From the NCBI GenBank assembly GCA_011392765.1, contig WYCW01000002.1, positions 466,917-530,916 on the forward strand: a stretch of DNA of 64,000 nt, in the 5' to 3' direction. Origin of the DNA: Candidatus Thiosymbion ectosymbiont of Catanema sp. Cochon2018 (GTDB lineage Bacteria > Pseudomonadota > Gammaproteobacteria > Chromatiales > Chromatiaceae). The notes beneath the pieces were generated by a model. It had not been told where the DNA came from. It worked only from the letters and a program-made list of their open reading frames with translations, and did not search any database. The translations under genes were made by a program, and so were the position numbers. Shown piece by piece: positions 10,303 through 51,679 of this stretch (the first letter of the stretch is position 1; the number at the start of each line of letters is the position of its first letter).

Positions 10303-12882
<2,580 letters not shown>

Positions 12883-19510: not shown

Positions 19511-19645
19511 GTTGTCGATGAGGGGTTGAGGTTACTGCCGGGTTTTGGCCGTCCTTGGCCGCAACCCAGCCTACAGCCTACGATCTCTTTTTAGACAGTC
19601 TCTCAACTAAAAGCTGGCGCTCGGAAGCTGGTAGCCGGTGGTTCG

Positions 19646-38382: not shown

Positions 38383-39201
38383 ATGAGCCGACAGGCGACA
38401 GTCTTTATCAGCTACAGGCGTTGTCAACGCGACATGGCGATACTCGATCGCCTGAAGACATTCCCCGATCCTTTGGAGCGGGAAGGACTGATCTGTGGCT
38501 GGACCGATCGTGACATCAAAGGTGGGGAAGACTGGCACAAGAAAATCGAGGCTGCACTCGAACGCGCCAAGATCGGTGTGTTGCTGATCTCTCAGGATTT
38601 TCTGGCCTCGGAGTTCATCCAGAAGATCGAGTTACCCCGTTTGTTCGCCCGAAAGGTCAGAGGTGAGACGACCATCCTGCCGGTGTTTGTCTCGCCTTTT
38701 GATGAGGAGTACAAGGTCCCGTTTCTCGATGCCGCCGGCGTTCAGCAATACGCTCGGCTGTCCGAACTACAAGGATTTGCCCGTCCTAACCACACCTTGG
38801 CCCATATGAAGCTGGTGGAGCAGGAAGATATATTCCAGGACCTTGTCAAGCGCATCCGCGAACTTATCGGCGAGTCTTCGGAACAATCCGCTGGCCCGAT
38901 GGTTACCACAACACCGCCACCCACTACCCCGCCGCCTGTCACGACGTTGCCGATTCTTACCCTGCGTCTCGACTGCGTGGATGGTGCACTTTATGTCGAG
39001 GCCCTGCGCCCGCAGCCACGCCACCAATATCACCGCCCATATCCGGCGCCTGGTGGCGAAACAGACGATGGTGCCCTGGGTCTGCACCTACCGCGAGCTG
39101 GAGGCCGCACTCGACCAGGAGCCGGACTTCCTGTATGTGTTCGCCCAGATCTCCGACACCGATGGTCTTGGCCTCGTTCTCGGCAAGGACGCCAAGCATA
39201 G
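38383..39201 (+). CDS. TIR-domain protein, N-terminal part of a frameshifted gene
   Basis: Residues 1-160 are a TIR domain: VFISYRRCQRD (strand A), CGWTDRDIKGGEDWHKKIE (BB-loop region) and VLLISQDFLASEFIQKIELP, in which the glutamate after S-x2-F-x2-S sits where the NADase catalytic residue is expected. A Thr/Pro linker (TTTPPPTTPPPVTT) follows. Coding then continues with LTLRLDCVDGALYVEALR, after which the frame is lost near 39009. Joined to the next entry, the native product would be about 680 residues. Upstream, in frame with the ATG, is VYLQVEYLDFIDIHAVLDD, a remnant of an older gene cut by a palindrome. TIR effectors deplete NAD or make signal nucleotides in bacterial defence. Confidence 0.8.
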   Translation: MSRQATVFISYRRCQRDMAILDRLKTFPDPLEREGLICGWTDRDIKGGEDWHKKIEAALERAKIGVLLISQDFLASEFIQKIELPRLFARKVRGETTILPVFVSPFDEEYKVPFLDAAGVQQYARLSELQGFARPNHTLAHMKLVEQEDIFQDLVKRIRELIGESSEQSAGPMVTTTPPPTTPPPVTTLPILTLRLDCVDGALYVEALRPQPRHQYHRPYPAPGGETDDGALGLHLPRAGGRTRPGAGLPVCVRPDLRHRWSWPRSRQGRQA

Positions 39202-40435
39202 CGAGTTCTACCCCCTGAAGCGGCTCAGCGAGCGGCTCGCGGGCTTTCGTGCCGAGCCGTTGGTATGGCTACACCTCCTCCCCGGAAACCAGGCCGATTC
39301 CCTGCGGACCCAGCTGTGGGATCGGCTACGTCCCCTCACCCGACTACTGTTGATCCAGTTCACAACCCCTGGGAGGCACCCTAATAGTCTCAAGGATACC
39401 CTGGAGTGGATGGCCGCTATGGCCGAGGCCAAGGATGCTGAGGCGGAACCTGCCGCCGTGCTGAGCCGCCTCGGCGGCCAGCATGACACCTGCCAGCGTG
39501 ACACCTACCTCTGGCTCGGCGACCGCAGTATCGGCCTGAGCCGTCCCCGCAAAGACAGCGATGTCGCCCTTATCGCCTACATCCATGCCTCGCTGATCCG
39601 CCTGCTGCTGGGGCGCAAATCCGAAAGGCGCCAGCTTGCCGGTGGTATCCGCGAGAAACCCGAGGGCTATCTGACCTTCTACGGCGTCTGCGGCGATGAG
39701 CAGGCCTGTGTGCACGATTTCCCCGAGCAGGCCCGTCATTACCTCGAAGAACTCGACCGGAATACCGTCGTCGAGATACGTCCGCTGCCCCTGATTATGC
39801 GGGTATCGATGTCGCACGACGAGGTCGTCACCCAGCTCATGCAGGATCTCAACATCGGCCATTTGATGCCAGCGCGGGAGGCATTGGAGCATATCCCCGT
39901 GGTGCCCCCTGACCGGGAAGACAGCCTCATCATTACCCTCTCCTGGCTGTTGGAGCCCGCCGCGGATTTCACCCCGGACGACCTCACCGGGTGGCTTATA
40001 GCCTGGAAGAAGGGTGTGCTGGACGTGTTTGACAGGGAGCAGATACCACCTGAATTTCGTCTCCTGGTCGGTGCCTGCATCCAGTGGTCGGAGGATTGGC
40101 TCAAACCCGATACTGACACCTCGGCGCTGCAGGAGACGATCGACCGCGTACTCGGTCAGGACAACCCACGTGACTACGTATATTGCATCGAGATGCAACA
40201 CCCACTCTCCCTGCTGCGTAAGACCGACCTGGAGGACTTCTACCACGACCCTAAGCTGCAACAACGGTTGCGTGCGCAGGATCTACAAATCGACCGGCTG
40301 GTGGATTACATCCTGGACAGGACCAAGGGCCGCTTCCAGGACACCGTCGATCTCATCTACAGTATTGCTGGGTTTTGGCCGTCCCTGGCCGCAACCCAGC
40401 CTACGGCCTCCGGTCCTTTTTTAGACAGTCTCTAA
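38843..40435 (+). CDS. C-terminal part of the frameshifted TIR protein, ending in repeat-derived residues
   Basis: Real coding probably starts near 39012; the first 55 residues of this frame are out-of-phase sequence. From there HATNITAHIRRLVAKQTMVP continues the upstream frame naturally. The body (about 480 residues) has alternating strands and helices (FLYVFAQISDTDGLGLVLG, LVWLHLLPG, RLLLIQFTTPG) and is not recognised; it resembles the large regulatory regions of STAND/VMAP-type conflict proteins only in general character. The last about 20 residues (AGFWPSLAATQPTA and onward) are translated from the GCTGGGTTTTGGCC repeat and its TTTTTAGACAGTCTCT end, so the original C-terminus has been replaced. 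Confidence 0.7.
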   Translation: MSSASANLSASLRNNPLARWLPQHRHPLPRRLSRRCRFLPCVSTAWMVHFMSRPCARSHATNITAHIRRLVAKQTMVPWVCTYRELEAALDQEPDFLYVFAQISDTDGLGLVLGKDAKHSEFYPLKRLSERLAGFRAEPLVWLHLLPGNQADSLRTQLWDRLRPLTRLLLIQFTTPGRHPNSLKDTLEWMAAMAEAKDAEAEPAAVLSRLGGQHDTCQRDTYLWLGDRSIGLSRPRKDSDVALIAYIHASLIRLLLGRKSERRQLAGGIREKPEGYLTFYGVCGDEQACVHDFPEQARHYLEELDRNTVVEIRPLPLIMRVSMSHDEVVTQLMQDLNIGHLMPAREALEHIPVVPPDREDSLIITLSWLLEPAADFTPDDLTGWLIAWKKGVLDVFDREQIPPEFRLLVGACIQWSEDWLKPDTDTSALQETIDRVLGQDNPRDYVYCIEMQHPLSLLRKTDLEDFYHDPKLQQRLRAQDLQIDRLVDYILDRTKGRFQDTVDLIYSIAGFWPSLAATQPTASGPFLDSL

Positions 40436-41047: not shown

Positions 41048-42043
41048 ATGACCGACTCCCTGAACTTCCTCCGCTACCAACCCCAGGGCATCGACTGGGA
41101 CAAACACGATCCGGCTACCGAACGCAAGCGCCTTGCAGCCAGCGCCCATGCCGCCGACCACCGCCGCCTGCAGCAGGGCGCCCGCAATTTTCTACCCTCC
41201 GAATATCTGGTCAATGCCGTCAACGCCGCCATCGCCACCCGCTCGCCTCTGCTGCTCACCGGCGACCCCGGTACCGGCAAGACCCAGGTCGCCTACTACC
41301 TGGAGCAGTACTTCGGGATTCCGCTCTTCCATTATCAGGTCCACTCCGACAGCAGCGCCCGCGATCTGCGTTATGACTTCGACGCCGTCGCCTACCTGCG
41401 CGATGCCTATCTCGCCTCGCTGCACCTGGAGCAATCCGATACTGAACCGGCCGCTCCGCCGGAACGTACCGACCCGCGCTATCTGCACAAAGGTAAGCTG
41501 TGGCTGGCCTACGAGCATCCCGGCGAATACGTACTCCTTATCAACGAGATCGACAAGGCCCCGCGGGATTTCCCCAACGACCTGCTCCAGGAGTTGGCCG
41601 ACTACTGCTTCGACCACCCTTTTCCATCCGATCCACCCAATCCGCCGATCGAGCGCGGCGACCGGCCGCCACCCATCGTCATCATCACCAGCAATGGGGA
41701 GCGTCGCCTACCCGATCCTTTTCTGCGCCGCTGCATCGTCCACCACATCGAGCTGGACGAGGAGTTGCTCACCCGCATCCTCGGCGCTTGGGAGGGTGAG
41801 TTTGCCGAGCGCCTGTCGCCGCCGGTGCAAAAACAGGCGTTCCGGCGCTTTCTCGAGCTGCGCCGCCGCCTGGAAAAACGCAGCCGACCACCCCCCGGTG
41901 CCGCCGAGCTGCTGATCTGGCTCACCATCCTCGCCGCCCAGGGGGCCGAGTTGAAGCAGCTCCAGGATGAGGTCCCGCTCGCCGAGCTGCCGGCCCTCGA
42001 GGGCCTGATCAAGGACCACGAAAACTATGCCCACCTGCGCTGA
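41048..42043 (+). CDS. MoxR-type AAA+ ATPase
   Basis: 331 residues. Walker A GDPGTGKTQVAYYL (about 75), Walker B VLLINEIDKAPRDFPNDLL (about 162), sensor 1 IVIITSNGERRLPDPFLRRC (about 215) and an arginine-finger region are intact; the lid is helical. MoxR ATPases act as chaperone-like switches, often with vWA or membrane partners. Here it stands between the TIR gene and the large membrane FGE gene on the same strand, an arrangement seen in ATP-dependent bacterial conflict systems. It is the one gene of the three without visible damage. Confidence 0.88.
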   Translation: MTDSLNFLRYQPQGIDWDKHDPATERKRLAASAHAADHRRLQQGARNFLPSEYLVNAVNAAIATRSPLLLTGDPGTGKTQVAYYLEQYFGIPLFHYQVHSDSSARDLRYDFDAVAYLRDAYLASLHLEQSDTEPAAPPERTDPRYLHKGKLWLAYEHPGEYVLLINEIDKAPRDFPNDLLQELADYCFDHPFPSDPPNPPIERGDRPPPIVIITSNGERRLPDPFLRRCIVHHIELDEELLTRILGAWEGEFAERLSPPVQKQAFRRFLELRRRLEKRSRPPPGAAELLIWLTILAAQGAELKQLQDEVPLAELPALEGLIKDHENYAHLR

Positions 42044-42664: not shown

Positions 42665-43123
42665 ATGCCCGCACCCGTGATTCTCGGCGAGGACCCGCGC
42701 CTGGCACAGCTCCTCAGACGCCTGCCCGACCTGGGCGTACCTGTGCTGCCGCTCGATTACGAGCGTATTTTCCGGGTCTTTGCCCCCGGTCGCCGGCTGG
42801 AGTGGATTGCCGCGCGCGAGCTCCTGATTACCCTGCTGGCCAAGGACGCGGAGCAACGCTCTCTCATACGCCGCGAATTCCGCCGCCGGATACCACCGGT
42901 GGAGGAGAAGGCGGAGGAGGCACCACCCGCGGACGATGACACCGCGCAGGAGACAACTGCCGCCGACGCTGCCGCAGACCAAGCCGATCCGCATTCGCCG
43001 CCTGCCCCCACGCCTTCTAAGCCTGTCATCCTGACCACCCCGCGCGAGCGCCGCTGGCCGATATGGCGACTCGCCCTAGGTATTGCCGTATTTGCGGTCA
43101 TCGCCGCACTACTCACCGCCTAG
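42665..43123 (+). CDS. N-terminal part of a giant membrane FGE protein, ended by an in-frame TAG
   Basis: 152 residues: a soluble helical domain (1-80, VILGEDPRLAQLLRRLPDLG), a low-complexity acidic linker (EEKAEEAPPADDDTAQE), then a membrane helix (WRLALGIAVFAVIAALLTA). The TAG at 43121-43123 comes straight after the helix, and the same frame continues without another stop to 46357: LWFREQPLLQQEQPLL and onward. The natural product is probably one protein of about 1,230 residues; TGG to TAG is the simplest change. If truncated, this piece would be a small anchored protein. Confidence 0.75.
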   Translation: MPAPVILGEDPRLAQLLRRLPDLGVPVLPLDYERIFRVFAPGRRLEWIAARELLITLLAKDAEQRSLIRREFRRRIPPVEEKAEEAPPADDDTAQETTAADAAADQADPHSPPAPTPSKPVILTTPRERRWPIWRLALGIAVFAVIAALLTA

Positions 43124-43216
43124 CTCTGGTTCCGGGAGCAACCGTTACTCCAGCAGGAACAGCCGTTACTCCGGCAGAAGCAGTCCCTATCCCAACAGGA
43201 GGAGCCATCGCCCCAA

Positions 43217-46200
43217 GTGGTTCCCGAGTCGTCACTGCCCCCGGGCGAGCTGCCAACCGATCCGATCCGTTCTTTCCATGATTGGGTGCCGGTGATTGAA
43301 CCCCTGGACCCGGCCGCGGCCCTGGCTGCTTGGTTGCCCCCGCTGATCTTATTGATCGGAGGGCTGCTCGGCATTGCCTGGCTGTGGGAACGCAGTCGCT
43401 TCCTACACTCGCCGCACTATGACCAGGTCGATTTCGATCCCGAGGGCGAATCGGTGCTCGTCTGGTCAGCGGCGGAGCTGCGCCTGCCTGGCCTCCTGTC
43501 CGCAAGCCAGCGTCGGGAGATGGTGTGGGGCGTGCAGCGCTTCGAGAGCGAGCGCACCACCTCTCTGCTCGACGTACCCGCCACCGTGCGCGGCAGCGCC
43601 GAGGCCGGTTTTCCCGAGCTGCACTTCGCCCGCGCCCGCTACGAGCGTGAGGTCTGGCTCTGGCTCGACAGCCGCCTGCGTACCCGTGAAGCCGTCGCCC
43701 TGGCCGACCAGATCGAGCGCGAGCTCGGTCGCGCCGGGCTGCGGGTACGCCGCGCGACCTTCCCGGCCCTGCCCGTCAAGCTCCGCTTCGCCACCCATGA
43801 GCACGCCTCGCCGTTCGACCTCGACGCCGCCGCCCGGCAGGCCCTGGTCGCCCTGTTCACCGACGGTACCGGAATCGCCCACACCCTGGACGGCACGGAC
43901 AGCGATCGGAAAGCGGAGCTGGAGCGCGTCCTCCGCGAGCTGCGGACCTGGCCGAGATTGTGCCTGGTGGATTTCTCCCCACCGGAGCTCGACCTCCCGC
44001 ATCTGGCTGCCCGTCTCGGCCTCGCCTGCGTCGCCCCCGATAGGCTCCCTGCCTGGCTGGCGGAACGAGAGACCCGTGGGCCGATCAGCGACCTGCAACC
44101 GATTACGGATCTGGAGACCCGTCTGTGGGTCGCCGCCTGTGCCCTGCCGCGCCTGCCGGTGACCCTGGCCCAGACCCGTGATCTCTATCAGGCACTCGGG
44201 CTGCCGCCGGCCTGGCGACTACCGGCACCGACGGCCGGCCACAGCGGCGCCGACGGCATCCGTTTCAGCAACGGTGAACGCCGGTGCCTGCTCGCCGATC
44301 TCGCCCGTTGGATATGGGAAGACGGCCTCGATAGTGAGGCCGGCCGTTGCTTGAAGACCGCACTCGATTTCTGGAGGGCCCGCCTCGCCGACAACACCGC
44401 GCATCCGGAGCGGCTGGCGGATACCACCCCCGACGCACGCTGGAAGGACAGCGGCGCCGGTCACGAGCAGGCCATCGAGCGCTATCTGCTCGACCTGTGG
44501 TGGGGCGACCGCCGCACGGCCCAAGCCGTGCGCAGGCTTTGGGACCGCTATCAGCTCTACGACCACAGGGACTTGCAACGGCTCAAACGGCTGATCCGTG
44601 AGCGATTGGGGGAGCTCAGTGCCCGTGGCCTCGAAAGTGCAAAGGATGACGGGCGCATCGTCCTGCCCTGGCACTGGCGGCAGCTCCCGGAGATCGCCGG
44701 CGAGCCGCCCGGCACCGCCCACCAACGTTTATTGGGTATGGGCTTCGCCGGCGCCAAGCCCGGCGCGAGAAAGGCCCTGGGCGCGGACACCCGGCTCCTG
44801 TTCGGCGCCTTCGCCGGCATCGCCCTGGCCGGTTTTATCGCTGCCGGGCAACGCCTCGCCACCCCAGCTGCCGTCATTGTTCACGACGCACCAGTGTACG
44901 AAAGTCCCCTGTTCCAAAGCCTGGTGATGGAACGGAAACACCGCGGACGCCTCTACGCCGCCTCCCGCAAGCTCGTCGCCGAGCAGGCACTGCTTCCCGG
45001 CGAGCAGCTGCGAGTCCACTGGTGCTGGAGTGGTGTGTCTGCTAAGCAGGCACTGGAATCCTGCCGTGATCTGCTCGGGAATCAAAACGACCCGCGTCGG
45101 GTCAATGTCGTGCCCAAAGGTGAAAGAGGTGAAAGGGGCGAGAGCGCCCTGTTGCGTGCCGGCAGTCTTGCCGAGCCCATCCGCGCCTGCGCCCGGGACT
45201 GGCCGGCACTCTCGGTAGCTATAATCGCCGGCGATCCCTGGCTCTGGCCGGAGCAAGCCGACAACAACCTGGCCGCCCGCCGGCTCGCCATCCAACTGCT
45301 CGACAGCGGCGCCGTCGACCTGGCACTCATCGGTCCGGCGGAATCGACCGCAGCCCAGGAATTGGCCTCCGAGTGGGCATTCGTCACCGACAGCCAGTGG
45401 CTCTTCTTCTCTCGCCTGTCGGAGCCGACACCGGGCGTGCCGGTCCCTGCACTCGGCAACCACCGGGCCCTGATCCATGCCGATTACGACCAACTCGCCT
45501 ACCACCTGCGCGACCGGGTGGACGGCGTGCTCGACCCGGCGGACCCGGACGAGCGCCTGCCGCCGGATGTCGCCCGCATCGAGGTCCTGGCCGGTACACC
45601 TCGGCTTTGGGGCGGTCCTGAAATCTCGGAAGATCCCGCCGGGATCGAATTCGTCCGCATCTGCCCCGGTACCTTCACCATGGGTTCTCATTCGCCATCA
45701 CCCGATATGGCCGACGAGGATCCCGCTCGCCCCTATCCTGAAGAATTCCCCGCCCATCCAGTGCTTCTGGATGGTTTCGAGATCGCACGCACCGAGACCA
45801 CCTGGGACCAGCTTGCCGTACTCCGTCCCGAGGTAGTGAACAACCGAGGAAACCAGAACGGCAATTGGCCTGCCGTGTCTATCAACTGGAAAGACGCAGA
45901 CATGGCCTGCCGGCAACTGACGACACCTGGCGGAAGCGGGAAACTGCCGACGGAGGCCCAGTGGGAATATGCCGCCCGCGGCGGCGCCCAAACCCCCTGG
46001 TCCTGGGGCGACGACCCTGAGCGGGCCGGCGATTACGCCTGGTACTCCGGCAACTCTAGTTATCCCTCGGAGCCCGTGAAGACTAAGTTGCCCAATCCAC
46101 TGGGGCTCCATGACATGCACGGCAATATCTGGGAGTGGACACGCGACTGTTACGACGCGGATGCCTACAAGGGCCGCAGCCCCTACCCGACGGCTGTGCC

Positions 46201-46357
46201 GATAGTGGACAACACCCTATGCAGCAGCCGGGTGCTCCGCGGCGGCTCCTTCGTCAACGAGCCCAGGGTCCGGCGCTCCGCGGTCCGGGGCAGGCGCGAG
46301 CCCGAGGGCTGGGACGTCCTCATCGGGTTTCGGTGTGTTCGCGGTTCCGGCCGGTAG
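43217..46357 (+). CDS. Large membrane protein with C-terminal FGE/C-type-lectin-fold domain (DGR variable region at its end)
   Basis: 1046 residues as counted from the first start after the amber codon, but in frame with the preceding entry. A membrane helix lies near 33-55 (LPPLILLIGGLLGIAWLWE), a long cytoplasmic-type region to about 520, another helix (LLFGAFAGIALAGFIAAG, about 530-548), a receptor-like domain, and an FGE-sulfatase/SUMF1 domain from about 800: LPTEAQWEYAARGGAQTPW, NPLGLHDMHGNIWEWTRD, RVLRGGSF and GFRCVR. The cysteine pair of catalytic formylglycine-generating enzymes is not seen, so this is more likely a ligand-binding C-type-lectin fold. The final 127 bases behave as a DGR variable region (see findings). 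Confidence 0.85.
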   Translation: MVPESSLPPGELPTDPIRSFHDWVPVIEPLDPAAALAAWLPPLILLIGGLLGIAWLWERSRFLHSPHYDQVDFDPEGESVLVWSAAELRLPGLLSASQRREMVWGVQRFESERTTSLLDVPATVRGSAEAGFPELHFARARYEREVWLWLDSRLRTREAVALADQIERELGRAGLRVRRATFPALPVKLRFATHEHASPFDLDAAARQALVALFTDGTGIAHTLDGTDSDRKAELERVLRELRTWPRLCLVDFSPPELDLPHLAARLGLACVAPDRLPAWLAERETRGPISDLQPITDLETRLWVAACALPRLPVTLAQTRDLYQALGLPPAWRLPAPTAGHSGADGIRFSNGERRCLLADLARWIWEDGLDSEAGRCLKTALDFWRARLADNTAHPERLADTTPDARWKDSGAGHEQAIERYLLDLWWGDRRTAQAVRRLWDRYQLYDHRDLQRLKRLIRERLGELSARGLESAKDDGRIVLPWHWRQLPEIAGEPPGTAHQRLLGMGFAGAKPGARKALGADTRLLFGAFAGIALAGFIAAGQRLATPAAVIVHDAPVYESPLFQSLVMERKHRGRLYAASRKLVAEQALLPGEQLRVHWCWSGVSAKQALESCRDLLGNQNDPRRVNVVPKGERGERGESALLRAGSLAEPIRACARDWPALSVAIIAGDPWLWPEQADNNLAARRLAIQLLDSGAVDLALIGPAESTAAQELASEWAFVTDSQWLFFSRLSEPTPGVPVPALGNHRALIHADYDQLAYHLRDRVDGVLDPADPDERLPPDVARIEVLAGTPRLWGGPEISEDPAGIEFVRICPGTFTMGSHSPSPDMADEDPARPYPEEFPAHPVLLDGFEIARTETTWDQLAVLRPEVVNNRGNQNGNWPAVSINWKDADMACRQLTTPGGSGKLPTEAQWEYAARGGAQTPWSWGDDPERAGDYAWYSGNSSYPSEPVKTKLPNPLGLHDMHGNIWEWTRDCYDADAYKGRSPYPTAVPIVDNTLCSSRVLRGGSFVNEPRVRRSAVRGRREPEGWDVLIGFRCVRGSGR
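46226..46352 (+). other. Candidate DGR variable region, copy 1
   Basis: Encodes RVLRGGSF to GSG at the end of the large FGE protein. It differs from 47937-48063 at 18 of 127 positions; 17 are at first or second codon positions and change 12 residues. Constant codons match base for base. A hairpin follows at 46358-46394. Confidence 0.75.
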
Positions 46358-46394
46358 GTTGGGCAAAGCCGCCATGGACGGCGGTGTGCCCAAC
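46358..46394 (+). repeat. Hairpin directly after the variable region
   Basis: GTTGGGCA-AAG-CCGCC-ATGGAC-GGCGG-TG-TGCCCAAC, beginning right after the stop codon of the FGE gene. The same hairpin follows the second FGE gene (47892-47926 region, minus strand). DGR variable regions commonly have such a hairpin beyond their 3' end; it may double as a REP-like sequence. Confidence 0.7.
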
Positions 46395-46530
46395 ACAGGC
46401 ATTGCGGGAGACAAATAACGCGCCCATTGATTGATCGTCTTTTGAATCGCAAAACCGGTAGGTTGGGCAAAGCCAGGTAGGTTGGGCAAAGGGCGTCCAG
46501 GGACGGACGCACGTGCCCAACACAAGCACC

Positions 46531-46686
46531 GTAATTGATTAGCGGCATCTAATCCTTATTTTTCAATGAGTTATGCGATTCGATGGTATTGAAAAAGCGG
46601 CTCAATCGCTATTTTGGGCGGCCTCCATAAACGTAACCGTTTGTTTTTACTATGTTTACAGAACTGGAGGGCCGCTAATCAATTAC
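46531..46686. mobile_element. 156-bp MITE, copy 2, with 8-bp target duplication
   Basis: Same element as 21664-21819; CAAGCACC is duplicated at 46523-46530 and 46687-46694. It lies between the large FGE gene and the 3' end of the RAYT gene. Confidence 0.92.
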
Positions 46687-46707
46687 CAAGCACCTGCAGG
46701 GAAAGTG

Positions 46708-47244
46708 TCATTCACAATCGAATTCCTTGATATCCTCCGGCTCGGTGGCTCCCCAATCCGGGGCGTACCACCCTCTCTGCGCACATCGTTGGAATGAGCT
46801 GTATGGCCATTCGCCTGCTGATCGTGCATATCCATGCTTGACCGGATTGTAATGGATGTAGTCCATATGATTCCGCCAATCGTTTTCATCGCGGATGGTG
46901 TGTTCCCAGAAACGTCTCTGCCAAACGGGCTTCTCCCGCTTGTTATGGCGCGAGACCGATTGCATCTCTTTGAGTCCAACGCAACCGATGCTGAAATAGC
47001 CTTTAATCCGACTCCAGCGGGTTGAATAATCATGGTCACCTCCGGGTAGGCTCCAGAGTGTGTGAAGGTGATCGGGCAGGATGACAATAGCGTCGATAGT
47101 GAAGGGATATTTTTCTATCTCCCTTTTGAACGCCGCTTTCAGACGGTCGGTGTTCTCCGGAAGCGAAAAAAGGGGTTGACGCCGGTAGGTGACAACGGTG
47201 AAGAAGTAGCTGCCGCCGGGTTGTTTTGACCTGCGGTATTTCAT
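46708..47244 (-). CDS. REP-associated tyrosine transposase (RAYT)
   Basis: 178 residues from the ATG at 47244 (MKYRRSKQPGGSYFFTVVTY); the longer frame upstream is repeat sequence. VILPDHLHTLWSLPGGDHDY carries the H-x-H metal motif of Y1 (IS200/IS605-like) transposases, and YIHYNPVKHGY the catalytic tyrosine region. RAYTs are single-copy domesticated enzymes linked to REP palindromes. TTGGGC-type palindromes of that kind flank it on both sides, and a decayed second copy lies at 47486-47851. Confidence 0.92.
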   Translation of the reverse strand: MKYRRSKQPGGSYFFTVVTYRRQPLFSLPENTDRLKAAFKREIEKYPFTIDAIVILPDHLHTLWSLPGGDHDYSTRWSRIKGYFSIGCVGLKEMQSVSRHNKREKPVWQRRFWEHTIRDENDWRNHMDYIHYNPVKHGYARSAGEWPYSSFQRCAQRGWYAPDWGATEPEDIKEFDCE

Positions 47245-47274
47245 GATATTCGGGTGGCATGTTTGGGAACGAGG

Positions 47275-47330
47275 TGTTGGGCTACCGGCCGGAACCGCGA
47301 ACACACCGGAACCCGATGTCGGCGCCCCTG
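47275..47330 (-). pseudogene. Remnant of a third FGE gene 3' end
   Basis: Reading the minus strand gives ADIGFRCVRGSGR and a stop, the exact ending of the FGE genes, with DNA nearly the same as at 46325-46355 and 47937-47975. The rest of the gene is absent. It adjoins the start of the intact RAYT gene just as the second FGE gene adjoins the broken RAYT copy, indicating a segmental duplication. Confidence 0.75.
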
Positions 47331-47405
47331 CCCTTGGACGCGAACCAGGAATGTTGGGCACGCCGCGTCCCTGCGGCTTTGCCCAACCTACGGGTTTTGC
47401 CCAAC

Positions 47406-47455
47406 CTTGTATGTTCTGTTTCCAAGGAAAAGCCAAGGATGAGGTATAAAAGGAT
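47406..47455 (-). repeat. Dispersed repeat with CCTTGGCTTT / GAAACAGAACATACAAG
   Basis: On the minus strand TATACCTCATCCTTGGCTTT is followed by CCTTGGAAACAGAACATACA. Related copies lie at 62292-62342 and, shorter, at 57145-57172, each close to TTGGGC or TAGGATG palindromes. Confidence 0.6.
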
Positions 47456-47485
47456 GTTTTACTTATTTTTGAATCGTTACTTAAT

Positions 47486-47851
47486 CCGGCTCCAACGGGT
47501 TGAATAAACTCGTGGGGCGTCACCTTGGGAGGCAAGCCCAAAGCGTGTGAAGGTGGTCGGGCAGGCCGATGACAATAGCGTCGATAGTGAAGGGATATTT
47601 TCTATCTCCCTTTGAACGCCGCTTTCTGCAGGGCACTCCTTGAAAAATGCGACTTTCGTCTTTGGCACACCCCAACAATCAATGGCTTAGGGCGAGTCTG
47701 CTTTTGGTGAATAATACCTATTTTTCAAGGTGCCCTTCAGACGGTCGGTGTTCTCCCGGAAGCGAAAAGGGGTTGACGCCGGTAGGTGACGACGGTGAAG
47801 AAGTAGCTGCGGGCACGCCCGTGGTTGTTTTGACCTGGCGCGTATTCGGTC
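47486..47851 (-). pseudogene. Decayed second RAYT copy with inserted element
   Basis: Matches the N-terminal half of the intact RAYT (KQPRAC-like start, SYFFTVVTYRRQPLF, RLK...FKREIEKYPFTIDA) but with frameshifts and no C-terminal half. A roughly 107-bp segment with AGGGCAC..CTTGAAAAAT / ATTTTTCAAGGTGCCCT ends (about 47630-47736) interrupts it between codons that are joined in the intact copy (GCTTTCAGACGG). Confidence 0.8.
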
Positions 47852-47925
47852 ATGATTATTCGGGTGCCCCGGCATGTTTGGGAACGAGGTGTTGGGCACG
47901 CCGCCGTCCGTGGCGGCTTGCCCAA

Positions 47926-49020
47926 CTACCCAAGCTGGCCGGAACCGCGAACACACCGGAACCCGATGTCGAAGTTCAAGCCCACGGGCTCGAACCTGCC
48001 CCGGCGCGCGGAGCGCAGGGACCTGGGCACGACGCCGAAGGAGCCGCCGCGGAGCACCCGGCTCTCACCCTCAGCCGGTCCCTCCGGGTTGTCCAGGTCC
48101 CGCGGGTCATAGGTGGCATACCAGTCCCAACACCATTCCCAGACATTGCCGGCCATATCATAGAGACCCCAGGGATTGGGCTTTTTCTCCCCGACCGGAT
48201 GAGGTTTGATACTGGAATTGTCTGCAAACCAGGCAAAGTGCACGGCGTCTTCCTTCTGTTCCCCCCAAAACCAGGGGGTTTGGGTACCCGCCCGACAGGC
48301 GTACTCCCACTCGGCCTCGGTAGGCAGGCGGTAGCCGTCGGCCTCCCAATCGCAGACCCATCCCGTTCCGGATTCCCGGTAGCAGATCCGGTGCCCGCTG
48401 CGTTCGGACAAGGTGTTGCAGAAACACACTGCGTCCTCCCAGGACACAGAATTGGCGGGCAACTCATCCCGGCCCGACTTCCATGCTTTCGGGGGGGCCT
48501 TCACCAGCGACCGATAGAGCCCGCGGGTGACGGGTGTGCGGGCCATGGCGAAGGGCTGGATACTGACCTCACGGTGCAGCCACTCATTTCCCGTCCGAAA
48601 GGTCCCGCCCGGCAGCTCTATCATCTCGATCAGTTGGTCCTGCACTGGATAGGGTGGCTGCGGCTCCGAAGGAATATCAGAACTTTCCGGCGGCTCCGGT
48701 GTTTCCACCGCCGGCTCCGGGATCGCCGGTCGGTACCGCTCCGGCTGCGTCTCTTCGACTTCCGCCGGGATGGTGCCGGGCTCCCACACCACCCGTATCC
48801 GTCGCCCCTGCCATATCGCCGCGACGGGGATCAGCAGTACCAACAAGACCGTCGCCACCAGGCTCCTGGAGGCGAGCCAGGCCAGCCCGGCTGCCGGGAT
48901 CAGGCCCAGCAGCAGGAGCAGGGGCGTGGGCCAGGGATCGAGATCGGCGACCGATCTCGGAAGGAAAAGCCCGCGCAGCCGCCGCAATCCAACGCCTGGT
49001 TTCGGGTCCCGGATCATCAT
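47926..49020 (-). CDS. Membrane-anchored FGE/C-type-lectin-fold protein (DGR variable region at its end)
   Basis: 364 residues. Two close N-terminal membrane helices (PTPLLLLLGLIPAAGLAWL and SLVATVLLVLLIPVAAIW, about 33-68), a proline/glutamate linker (about 85-120), and an FGE-sulfatase/SUMF1 domain: IELPGGTFRTGNEW, LPTEAEWEYACRAGTQTPW, NPWGLYDMAGNVWEWCWDW, RVLRGGSF and GFRCVR. Catalytic cysteines of true FGE are not evident, so ligand binding is more likely. It converges on the larger FGE gene. The last 127 bases before GSG form the second candidate variable region, followed by the same hairpin. Confidence 0.87.
   Translation of the reverse strand: MMIRDPKPGVGLRRLRGLFLPRSVADLDPWPTPLLLLLGLIPAAGLAWLASRSLVATVLLVLLIPVAAIWQGRRIRVVWEPGTIPAEVEETQPERYRPAIPEPAVETPEPPESSDIPSEPQPPYPVQDQLIEMIELPGGTFRTGNEWLHREVSIQPFAMARTPVTRGLYRSLVKAPPKAWKSGRDELPANSVSWEDAVCFCNTLSERSGHRICYRESGTGWVCDWEADGYRLPTEAEWEYACRAGTQTPWFWGEQKEDAVHFAWFADNSSIKPHPVGEKKPNPWGLYDMAGNVWEWCWDWYATYDPRDLDNPEGPAEGESRVLRGGSFGVVPRSLRSARRGRFEPVGLNFDIGFRCVRGSGQLG
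47937..48063 (-). other. Candidate DGR variable region, copy 2
   Basis: Counterpart of 46226-46352. Bases outside the 18 variable sites match the other copy exactly, although the preceding 200 bases of the two genes are clearly diverged, for example in the LPTEA-x-WEYA segment, where third positions differ. Confidence 0.75.
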
Positions 49021-49230: not shown

Positions 49231-51195
49231 ATGAAGCTGGTCGGCATCGATACCGGCGGGACTTTCACGGATTTCGTCCTGTGGCAGGACGGGGCCTTGC
49301 GGGTGCACAAGGTACTCTCCACCCCCCAGGCGCCGGAGACGGCGATCCTGCAGGGGATCCGGGAACTGGGGCTCGACGCGGAAGGTCTGCGGGTGATCCA
49401 CGGCTCCACCGTGGCTACCAACGCGGCCCTGGAGGGCAAGGGGGTGCGTACTCTCTATGTGGCGAACCGCGGGCTGGGGGATGTACTGACCATCGGCCGC
49501 CAGGCCCGCGAGGATCTGTACGATCTGCAACCACCGGCCCGTCGTCCGCCGGTCCCTCCCGAGCTCTGTTGGGAGACCGGAGGCAGGCTCGCCGCCGACG
49601 GGAGTCGGGTGGAACCCCTGACCGAGACGGATATTGCCGAGTTGCGTGCAGTGGCGGCGAGGCTGGGACCCGAGTCGGTGGCCATCAATCTGCTCTTTTC
49701 ATATCTGGACGACAGCGCCGAGCGGGCGCTGGCGCAGGCCCTGCCCGCCGGGCTCTTCGTCTCCCGGTCTTCCGCGGTGCTGCCGGTAACCGGGGAGTAT
49801 GAGCGCGGCATGGCGACTTGGCTCAATGCTTGGTTGGGCCCCCTGGTGGCGCGCTATGTGGAGCGATTGTGCCGCGGATTGCCCGGTGCCCTGGTCGCGG
49901 TCATGCAGTCCAGCGGCGAAGCGGTGGCTGCCGATCAGGTCGCCGACCAGGCGGTGCGGTTGCTCTTGTCAGGTCCCGCGGGCGGCCTGGCGGGCGCCGG
50001 CTTCGTCGGACGGCTGGCGGGCCGGGAGAGGCTGCTCACCTTCGATATGGGCGGCACCTCCACGGATGTGGCCCTGGTGGATGGTACACCCGGCCTGACC
50101 ACTGAGGGCCGCATCGCCGGTTATCCGGTGGCCGTACCCATGGTGGACATGCATACCATCGGTGCGGGCGGCGGCTCGATCGCTCGCTTGGATCCCGGGG
50201 GTCGGTTATTGGTGGGGCCCGAGTCCGCCGGTGCCGAGCCCGGTCCCGCCTGCTACGGCAAGGGCGGTGACCTGCCGACGGTCACGGACGCCAACCTGGT
50301 GCTCGGCCGGCTGCGCCCGGAGGCGTTCCTGGGGGGCCGTATGGAATTGGATGTCGCCGCCGCCGAGCGGGTGATCGGCCGCTTGGGCGCCGCCATGGGG
50401 CTGGACGCCGAGGCGACGGCCCTGGGTATCCTGCGGGTCGCCGACGAGCATATGGTGCAGGCCCTGCGGGTCATCTCGGTGCGGCGGGGGCTCGATCCTC
50501 GGGACTACACCCTGACTTCCTTCGGCGGCGCGGGGGGCCTGCACGTGTGTGCGCTGGCCGAGGCCCTGGGGGTACGGCAGGCCATGGTGCCGATCCATGC
50601 CGGGGTGCTCTCCGCGTTGGGTATGCTGGCGACCCCGCCGGGACGCCTGTTGACGCGCACCTGGCTGGGAAGGCTCGATGAGCGCAGCGATCGGCAGATC
50701 GGGCAGCGTTTGGAAACGCTGGCCGCGGAAGCCGTCGCGGCCCTGGCACGCGAGGGCCTGGATCCGGCAGGGCTGCGGACTGTCTCGTCCCTGGATCTGC
50801 GCTACCGGGGTCAATCCTACACCCTGAATCTCGGTTGGCAGGGGCGGGCTGCAACCGCCGAGGCCTTCCATCGGCTGCATCGGGAACGCTACGGTCATCG
50901 ACTCGAGCTCCCGATCGAGTTGGTCAATCTGCAGGTGCGAGTGACGGGTGCGCCGCCGGCCTTGGTCCTGACCCGAGCCGGCAGCGAAGCTGCCGTGCCC
51001 CGGAGCCGACAGGTAGCAGTGGCGGGTTGTGAGCATCCGGTCCCGGTATTTCGGCGGGCGGATCTGGATGGCGCCGACCCCGTGCCGGGTCCGGCGCTGA
51101 TCCTGGATACGGTTTCCACTACCTGGCTGGCACCCGGTTGGACCGCCTGTCTCGATGCCCTGAGCAACCTGCATCTTGAACGAAGGACTTTTTAA
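49231..51195 (+). CDS. Hydantoinase/oxoprolinase family protein (HyuA-like)
   Basis: 654 residues. The ASKHA-type ATP-binding motifs are LVGIDTGGTFTDFVLW at the N-terminus and LLTFDMGGTSTDVALVDG (about 270); HGSTVATNAALEGKG and MHTIGAGGGSIA are further family blocks. Members hydrolyse 5-oxoproline, hydantoins or N-methylhydantoin with ATP, or act as acetone-carboxylase-like subunits. The usual HyuB partner is not adjacent, so the substrate cannot be stated. It ends just before a dense run of ATTACGCAG palindromes. Confidence 0.9.
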   Translation: MKLVGIDTGGTFTDFVLWQDGALRVHKVLSTPQAPETAILQGIRELGLDAEGLRVIHGSTVATNAALEGKGVRTLYVANRGLGDVLTIGRQAREDLYDLQPPARRPPVPPELCWETGGRLAADGSRVEPLTETDIAELRAVAARLGPESVAINLLFSYLDDSAERALAQALPAGLFVSRSSAVLPVTGEYERGMATWLNAWLGPLVARYVERLCRGLPGALVAVMQSSGEAVAADQVADQAVRLLLSGPAGGLAGAGFVGRLAGRERLLTFDMGGTSTDVALVDGTPGLTTEGRIAGYPVAVPMVDMHTIGAGGGSIARLDPGGRLLVGPESAGAEPGPACYGKGGDLPTVTDANLVLGRLRPEAFLGGRMELDVAAAERVIGRLGAAMGLDAEATALGILRVADEHMVQALRVISVRRGLDPRDYTLTSFGGAGGLHVCALAEALGVRQAMVPIHAGVLSALGMLATPPGRLLTRTWLGRLDERSDRQIGQRLETLAAEAVAALAREGLDPAGLRTVSSLDLRYRGQSYTLNLGWQGRAATAEAFHRLHRERYGHRLELPIELVNLQVRVTGAPPALVLTRAGSEAAVPRSRQVAVAGCEHPVPVFRRADLDGADPVPGPALILDTVSTTWLAPGWTACLDALSNLHLERRTF

Positions 51196-51300
51196 ATCCG
51201 CAAATTACGCAGATTTTTTGAGGTAAATAATCTGCGAAAATCTGCATAATCTGCGGATAAAGAATAAAGAATCTTATTTAATCCGCAGATTACGCAGATT
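51196..51300. repeat. ATTACGCAG-type palindromes after the HyuA-like gene
   Basis: AAATTACGCAGATTTTTTGA pairs with AAAATCTGCATAATCTGCGG, immediately followed by a further left arm (51282-51310) that enters the 3' end of the GxxExxY gene. Confidence 0.75.
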
Positions 51301-51679
51301 TACGCAGATTTTTCGAGAAGACCATGCGCTTGTATTGGAGACTCCTGGCGCCGAAGTTGAGCAATAATCCTCGTTGTATTCCACTTGCCTTCAGGTAGTT
51401 AATCAGCTGAGATTCCTCCCTTGCAGTCAGGCGATCCAGCGCCTTCAATTCGACGACTATCTCCTCGTAACAAACAAAATCAGCACGGTAAGCGGTGCTC
51501 AGGATTCTCCCTCTATATGCCACCGGTAATTCAACCTCGCGCGCGAAGGGAATGTCCTGTTCAGAGAGCTCTACAGCCAGCGCATCCTGATACACCGCCT
51601 CCAAAAAACCGTGTCCAAGCTCGCGGTGCACAGCCATTGCTGCCCCAATGATCGCGTATGTTTGTTCGTCACGACTCAT
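51290..51679 (-). CDS. GxxExxY protein (PD-(D/E)XK-like)
   Basis: 129 residues. GHGFLEAVYQDALAVELSEQ holds the G-x2-E-x2-Y signature, and YRADFVCYEEIVVELKALDR the D..E-x-K core of the nuclease fold. Function in vivo is unknown; the family is widespread and often sits in accessory regions. The last residues (FSKNLRKSA) are translated from the ATTACGCAG palindrome, which also supplies the stop, so the C-terminus is repeat-derived. Its first 10 bases and upstream DNA are duplicated at 51832-51929. Confidence 0.85.
   Translation of the reverse strand: MSRDEQTYAIIGAAMAVHRELGHGFLEAVYQDALAVELSEQDIPFAREVELPVAYRGRILSTAYRADFVCYEEIVVELKALDRLTAREESQLINYLKASGIQRGLLLNFGARSLQYKRMVFSKNLRKSA

What the first reader, a model, noticed from the sequence alone, without database searches (positions are those of the whole stretch)
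46226..48063. Two FGE/lectin-fold genes carry a DGR-type variable region
The last 127 bases of the FGE domains (46226-46352 plus strand, 47937-48063 minus strand) align without gaps. They differ at 18 sites: 17 at first or second codon positions changing 12 residues (V/G, N/V, E/V, V/S, R/L, V/R, R/F, E/V, W/L, D/N, V/F, L/D) and one silent. All other codons match to the base, including third positions, although the genes just upstream are clearly diverged. All 17 sites could be adenines in a template; six keep A in one copy. Both regions end at the gene end and are followed by the same hairpin. Established knowledge: FGE/C-type-lectin tips are the usual DGR targets, mutated by template-adenine misreading. 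Caveats: a few As are constant in both copies, and neither the template repeat nor the reverse transcriptase is in this window.
Basis: partly seen in the sequence, partly recalled or inferred. Interest (0 to 1): 0.93.

Follow-up and report, generated by a model that had tools for sequence, protein, structure and literature searches.

The report
Orphaned hypermutated tails on paired sensors
Two neighbouring bacterial genes, predicted to be sensors of a defence system, end in short stretches that were likely rewritten by a diversity-generating retroelement, a natural mutation machine; no intact enzyme of that kind and no matching template was found in the genome assembly, so the tails are probably frozen relics.

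Summary
Two converging FGE-fold genes share a gap-free 127-nt end with 18 differences, 17 at codon positions 1/2; 41 of 42 third positions match, against 65 of 168 just upstream. A third, truncated copy differs from copy B at 10 of 56 sites, all at positions 1/2.

The DGR reading is supported by relatives. A homologous gene pair in another genome of the family has a template and an open-framed reverse transcriptase (RT) between its two variable regions. In the window's own genome another template explains 44 of 44 differences in three FGE genes by its adenines.

But no intact DGR RT and no template for this pair were found in the 99.8%-complete assembly; two broken DGR RTs lie elsewhere. Where RT and template sit in the intact homologue, the window has REP hairpins, a REP transposase and the third remnant. 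The long sensor and the TIR gene also look broken.

Verdict: an orphaned, probably frozen pair of DGR targets in a MoxR/TIR locus, like the degenerate loci of Thiohalocapsa PB-PSB1 (PMC10907252). Of 10 homologous pairs, 1 has an intact RT, 2 fragments, 7 none detected. A trans RT is not excluded.

The parts
46226..46352 (+). VR_A: variable region at the 3' end of the long FGE gene
   Evidence: gap-free 127-nt match to VR_B, 17 of 18 differences at codon positions 1/2; third positions 41 of 42 identical
47937..48063 (-). VR_B: variable region at the 3' end of the short FGE gene
47287..47346 (-). VR_C: truncated third variable region, not part of an FGE gene
   Evidence: 51 nt, 86%; 60 nt, 83% to VR_B; 10 of 10 differences from VR_B at codon positions 1/2 over 56 nt
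42665..46357 (+). Long target: N-terminal extension plus C-terminal FGE domain; ORFs 42665-43123 and 43217-46357 lie in one frame, separated by a stop at 43121-43123 where homologues such as P0002 (1222 aa) read through as one protein
   Evidence: ORFs; PF03781, 147.5 bits; 22 relatives; alignment across the stop
47926..49020 (-). Short target: 364-aa FGE-fold protein, converging on the long one
   Evidence: PF03781, 173.5 bits; best solved match TvpA 2y3c, E 5e-33
41048..42043 (+). MoxR-like AAA ATPase
   Evidence: AAA_5 33.7 bits, cut-off 22; similar gene beside the target pair in 8 of the 9 homologous loci other than the fragments L153 and L155
38383..39201 (+). TIR-domain ORF (predicted effector)
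   Evidence: TIR_2 53 bits, cut-off 28; ThsB-type TIR model, E 1.3e-18
38843..40435 (+). ORF in another frame that overlaps the TIR ORF; likely the rest of the same gene after a frame change
   Evidence: ORFs of 801-959 aa cover the matched part in 5 of 7 homologous loci checked
46708..47541 (-). REP-associated tyrosine transposase (RAYT) ORF inside the interval between the VRs
   Evidence: NF047646, 200 bits, cut-off 80; Y1_Tnp, 27.6 bits
46358..46394 (.). REP-type hairpin just after VR_A
   Evidence: folds as DNA with z -2.6
46481..46521 (.). REP-type hairpin
47353..47387 (.). REP-type hairpin next to the cut end of VR_C
47891..47926 (.). REP-type hairpin just after VR_B

Best explanation
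The two genes end in variable regions that were likely written by a diversity-generating retroelement whose reverse transcriptase and template were not found in this genome, so the regions are probably frozen orphans. How it likely worked: an RT copied a template RNA with random bases at its adenines, and the cDNA replaced the 3' ends of two converging genes, one long and one short, that sit in a MoxR-ATPase/TIR conflict locus as predicted ligand sensors. In an intact homologue (L151) template and RT stand between the two targets; here that interval holds REP-type hairpins, a REP-associated transposase and a truncated third variable region, which probably displaced them. Shown: the VR pattern, the third VR, the conserved converging pair with template and RT in relatives, the lack of a matching template and of an intact DGR RT in the assembly, and the interrupted frames of two neighbouring genes. 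Inferred: that homing wrote these VRs, that the loss came after the last homing, the sensor role, and that diversification has stopped.
For: VR pattern. Homologous converging pairs: 10 of 11 loci examined. Template and RT between the pair in L151: VR mismatches 8 of 10 and 16 of 18 at template A, the other two in each case in the first codon of the stretch compared; RT reads LGSWFSQ and YMDD. L134: 17 of 17 and 14 of 15 at template A, RT broken. Seven of eight codon columns that are AAN in at least four of five other templates vary in the window pair (p 6e-4). Same genome: class II template explains 13/13, 14/14 and 17/17 differences. Loss: no template by BLAST or pattern; RT searches find only RTs of other kinds, two broken DGR RTs and one unexamined weak match. 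REP hairpins and RAYT fill the interval. PMC10907252 describes degenerate loci in which MITE-like arrays replaced RT or template.
Against: Without a template the A-specificity of the window pair itself cannot be tested. Two of its 12 variable codons (columns 15 and 28) fall on columns not seen mutated in the five other template-VR sets, two of which (class II and G002) are close kin and not independent. The near-perfect third positions mean homing was recent, which sits uneasily with a missing machine and would also fit an RT in trans. The nonsense and frame changes in neighbouring genes could be sequencing errors.
Confidence: 0.75

Rival explanations
1. Active remote targets: the pair is still diversified in trans by a DGR RT and template on an unassembled stretch, another replicon, or an intact variant of the locus in other cells of the population.
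For: Third positions 41 of 42 identical point to recent homing. In Thiohalocapsa PB-PSB1 some loci are diversified in trans, and loci broken in the reference have intact variants in the population (PMC10907252 sections 4 part 1 and 8). Class II VRs match their template at all 70 of 70 non-matching-free...: every mismatch is at an A, although the RT beside that template is a fragment.
Against: No template for this class in a 99.77%-complete assembly, nor a VR match in plasmids, phages or viral contigs (the viral scan used an exact 34-nt pattern). Neighbouring genes are interrupted.
Confidence: 0.17
2. Gene conversion or inversion between the two inverted VRs keeps them alike, and selection alone made the residue differences; no DGR was needed.
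For: The VRs are inverted repeats with identical ends of 28 and 22 nt; converging pairs are conserved in 10 loci.
Against: Conversion would erase, not create, differences at 12 codons beside perfectly kept third positions; VR_C, outside any FGE gene, shows the same pattern; homologous pairs have templates with A at such sites.
Confidence: 0.05
3. Ordinary paralogues under diversifying selection at a ligand-binding surface.
For: FGE/C-type-lectin folds are binding domains; 17 of 18 changes alter residues.
Against: 65 of 168 third positions match upstream but 41 of 42 in the VR: ordinary paralogues do not change so abruptly in synonymous divergence.
Confidence: 0.03

Closest known systems
Clade 5A DGR loci such as DGR 8 of Thiohalocapsa sp. 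PB-PSB1 (PMC10907252, section 13)
   Different: No RT and no template at the window locus; no RT phylogeny is possible, so clade membership is by gene layout only
Degenerate DGR loci of PB-PSB1 (DGR 4, 5, 7; PMC10907252, section 4 part 1)
   Same: Targets persist while RT or template is replaced by hairpin (MITE-like) arrays
   Different: In PB-PSB1 each class keeps one complete locus in the genome; here none of the four VR classes has an intact RT in the assembly
MoxR ternary conflict systems, VMAP and iSTAND types (Kaur et al. 2020, PMC7159879)
   Same: MoxR ATPase, TIR-bearing component, FGE (FGS) component often tied to DGRs
   Different: No vWA domain found in the ORFs scanned
TvpA of Treponema denticola (2y3c)
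   Same: Best solved match of the short target; the match runs into the variable region
   Different: A lipoprotein of another phylum with its own DGR (from PMC10907252)
Bordetella phage BPP-1 DGR
   Same: Prototype: VR at a gene end, hairpin after the VR (PMC3240598, abstract)
   Different: Complete and active element; here the hairpins belong to a dispersed repeat and RT and template are missing

Membership tests
Diversity-generating retroelement (complete element) | Variable region at the 3' end of an FGE/C-type-lectin-fold gene | tested here: met
Diversity-generating retroelement (complete element) | VR differs from its template only at template adenines | tested here: inconclusive
   No template for the window pair; met for other pairs and for class II of the same genome
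Diversity-generating retroelement (complete element) | Cognate template repeat in the genome | tested here: not met
   (assembly 99.77% complete)
   other RT kinds and two broken DGR RTs; one weak match (C1:1325497-1325670, E 0.11) was not examined
Diversity-generating retroelement (complete element) | Accessory (Avd-like) gene beside the element | tested here: inconclusive
   PF05635 matches 9 places in the genome, none in the window; their neighbourhoods were not examined
Diversity-generating retroelement (complete element) | Ongoing diversification in the population | not testable with these tools
   No reads or second strain available
Clade 5A type MoxR-DGR locus | MoxR ATPase upstream of a long-extension target plus a short lectin-only target | tested here: met
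Clade 5A type MoxR-DGR locus | RT that falls in clade 5A | tested here: not met
   No RT at the locus by tblastn with six DGR RTs
MoxR-vWA ternary conflict system | vWA-domain component | tested here: not met
   No vWA match in six ORFs of the locus at E 0.1; not filed there

The most novel reading that the evidence does not exclude
Loss of the reverse transcriptase is a recurring, selected step: a DGR writes a pair of sensors, and deletion of RT and template then locks in a useful recognition surface, a heritable immune memory fixed by breaking the mutator. Of 10 converging VR pairs, 9 lack an intact RT at the locus, yet 6 of the 7 such pairs compared keep 32 to 36 of 36 third positions equal (the seventh, L153, 19).
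Probability: 0.15. Interest if true: 0.8.

Novelty: new member of a known kind. Interest (0 to 1): 0.5.

Why it matters
Surveys that start from the RT miss targets that have outlived their DGR. Starting from the target, 10 converging sensor pairs were found and only one still has an intact RT at the locus, so DGR-written sensors in conflict loci may be more common than RT counts suggest; the sample is small and was drawn by similarity to an RT-less locus. A genome with four VR classes and no intact DGR RT found is also a natural test of whether such sensors keep a function once they stop changing.

Tried and rejected
Considered and rejected: (a) a DGR RT inside the window: none by tblastn with six DGR RTs. 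(b) One of the genome's seven RVT_1 matches as the DGR RT: where the motif region is present they read QGxxxSP or the like, or look retron-like (meanings of motifs recalled); none reads (I/V/L)GxxxSQ. (c) VR_C as the lost template: it reads GGC GCC GAC where other templates have AAC codons, so it is a third VR. (d) The hairpin as a VR-specific homing signal: BPP-1 needs a hairpin after its VR (PMC3240598, abstract) and hairpins do follow both VRs here, but the same repeat also occurs away from VR ends and beside a REP transposase, so either role stays open. (e) A mobile source of the template: nothing in plasmids, phages or viral contigs.

Limits and mistakes: I labelled two VRs of L090 and two of L091 as template and VR, and one VR of L087 was out of register; none of those counts is used (one search places a class II-like template of G008 at L090 2026-2152 instead). 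The four VR classes were set by eye. Class I is less clean than class II: 53 of 67 mismatches at template A in the four ungapped VRs; 74 of 105 with the fifth, whose frame is shifted. In the slightly longer stretch, two of the three class II VRs have one non-A mismatch, at its first base. L135 was fetched but shows no VR motif and was left out of the pairs (10 of 11 loci). L133 and L152 pairs were not in the third-position table (their second VR was found later). Fragments G179:C139 and G189:C23 were not fetched. The genome-contig scan gave three distant loci only.
Full report
Observation. The two 127-nt ends are as described: gap-free, 18 differences, 17 at codon positions 1/2, one silent. 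Third positions agree at 41 of 42 codons, against 65 of 168 in the aligned FGE domain just upstream (Fisher p about 2e-13). A third, truncated copy at 47287-47346 (-) differs from VR_B at 10 of 56 sites, all at positions 1/2, and from VR_A at 9, one of them at position 3. Two of the six As that are constant in the pair (positions 74 and 89) vary in this copy. The argument that all sites could be adenines in a template has no force by itself, since any difference between two VRs would fit it.

What the genes are. Both genes end in an FGE-sulfatase domain (PF03781). The short protein (364 aa) has the DGR variable protein TvpA of Treponema denticola as its best solved match (2y3c, E 5e-33), ahead of FGE enzymes. 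The N-terminal extension of the long one has 22 further relatives in a protein search that scored 7,995 candidates. Of the 23 proteins listed, the window's own included, 21 show the C-terminal tail and vary at the same few positions of a conserved frame, RVLRGGSF...P..LRSA.R....P..R....GFRC. A MoxR-like ATPase and a TIR ORF lie upstream. This is the layout that PMC10907252 gives for clade 5A loci: MoxR ATPase, long-extension target without vWA, short lectin-only target, often TIR (section 13).

Relatives with the machinery. The gene pair converges, VR facing VR, in 10 of 11 homologous loci examined, the window included (L135 shows no VR motif). In L151 the interval holds a template and an RT with LGSWFSQ and YMDD in an open frame; VR mismatches are 8 of 10 and 16 of 18 at template A, the two others in each case in the first codon of the stretch compared. 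In L134 the template explains 17 of 17 and 14 of 15 mismatches, but its RT has a large internal deletion with a frame change. L155 keeps only an N-terminal RT fragment. The other seven (window, own class III pair in L044, L133, L150, L152, L153, L154) show no RT by tblastn with six DGR RTs at E 0.01. So at the locus 1 of 10 has an intact RT, 2 have fragments and 7 none detected. The sample was drawn by similarity to the window's RT-less locus and is not an unbiased rate. Eight of these pairs were compared codon by codon: third positions agree at 35 (window), 32 (class III), 32 (L150), 34 (L151), 19 (L153), 32 (L154), 36 (L155) and 36 (L134) of 36.

The window's own genome. The window is G000:C9:466917-530916 of a 5.0 Mb, 16-contig, 99.77%-complete genome. 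FGE domains match at 20 places; by eye their C-termini fall into four VR classes. Class II (L011, L016, L017) has a template at about C9:239349-239473 (-): 13 of 13, 14 of 14 and 17 of 17 mismatches over 114 nt are at template A. Class I has a template at about C1:1451444-1451557 that has drifted (53 of 67 mismatches at A in four ungapped VRs; 74 of 105 with a fifth, frame-shifted one). Class III (pair at C1:1898.8-1899.8 kb) and class IV (the window) have no template by BLAST or pattern. The seven RVT_1 matches do not read as DGR RTs. DGR RT queries find RTs of other kinds again (C12:253 kb, C1:1416 kb), one weak match not examined (C1:1325497, E 0.11), and two broken DGR RTs: C1:1450509-1451236 with several stops and frame changes, and C9:239513-239617, a fragment directly upstream of the class II template. 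In the same genus, G002 has a longer RT piece that ends after its TSQ motif in front of a template 96% identical to the class II one. In the family, G008 has an RT match of 340 aa beside a class II-like template, 88% identical.

The interval. Between the window's VRs lie all four copies of the hairpin found in 64 kb, a REP-associated tyrosine transposase (NF047646), repeats that look like a partial second transposase copy, and VR_C, cut off next to a hairpin. PMC10907252 reports MITE-like arrays that replaced the RT of DGR 4 and 5 and the template of DGR 7 (section 4 part 1). I infer the same fate here. VR_B and VR_C share flanking repeats and yet differ at 10 sites, all at positions 1/2, so homing probably went on after that duplication and before the truncation. 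Two more lesions: a stop at 43121-43123 splits the long target's frame, which reads through in homologues, and the TIR ORF (38383-39201) and the next ORF (38843-40435) lie in different frames, whereas ORFs of 801-959 aa cover the matched part in 5 of 7 homologous loci checked (the other two, L150 and L152, gave 292 and 442 aa). Sequencing error is possible for either.

Do the variable codons match known DGR columns? Codon columns mutated from A in five other template-VR sets number 20 of 36; 10 of the window's 12 variable codons fall on them (hypergeometric p 0.02). For columns seen in two or more sets it is 17 of 36 and again 10 of 12 (p 0.003). Eight columns are AAN in at least four of the five templates; seven of them vary in the window pair (p 6e-4). 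Two variable codons (columns 15 and 28) are unmatched, and two of the five sets (class II and G002) are close kin.

Verdict. The DGR reading of the VRs is right on the balance of evidence; the implied working DGR is not found. The most likely state is an orphaned target pair, written recently on an evolutionary scale and now fixed. The main rival is an RT and template in trans or in unassembled DNA; searches of plasmids, phages and viral contigs with the VR found nothing. Literature seen: PMC10907252 (outline and abstract, section 0 part 1, section 4 part 1, sections 8, 13, 18, and passages), PMC7159879 (passages and section 20), PMC3240598 (outline and abstract). Paper searches for DGR with MoxR (6 papers), DGR with truncation, trans and transposon terms (20 of 4,692 listed) and DGR with 'orphan' and 'variable region' (2 papers) showed by listing no title on RT-less pairs of this kind; supplements and closed papers were not seen.

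Noticed in passing
L043 about 11514-11744 (-) and L086 4282-4941: DGR RTs with the middle or end deleted directly in front of an intact-looking template, in the window's genome and in a same-genus genome (G002); both junctions run into the same sequence before the template. Similar RT losses in L134 and L155.
   Followed up: partly
L048 10391-11237 (own C1, about 1450390-1451236): A full-length-like DGR RT pseudogene with stops and frame changes beside a drifted template and VR-bearing FGE genes.
   Followed up: partly
L044 8816-17685 (own C1, 1898.8-1907.7 kb): A second converging VR pair in the same genome (class III) with MoxR-like and TIR ORFs; its TIR ORF is open over 801 aa.
   Followed up: partly
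L008 (own C11, 851054-851521): A retron-like RT (judged by recalled motifs).
   Followed up: no
window 40367-40435 and 19534-19602: The last 23 residues of ORF 38843-40435 recur in the window and near two other FGE loci (L043, L048) at 83-95% identity, a dispersed repeat running into a coding end.
   Followed up: no
window 51290-51679 (-): Small PD-(D/E)XK_3 family protein (PF13366, 141.6 bits).
   Followed up: no
window 49231-51195 (+): Hydantoinase/caprolactamase-alpha-like protein; best NCBIfam match 425 bits, below its cut-off of 1000.
   Followed up: no
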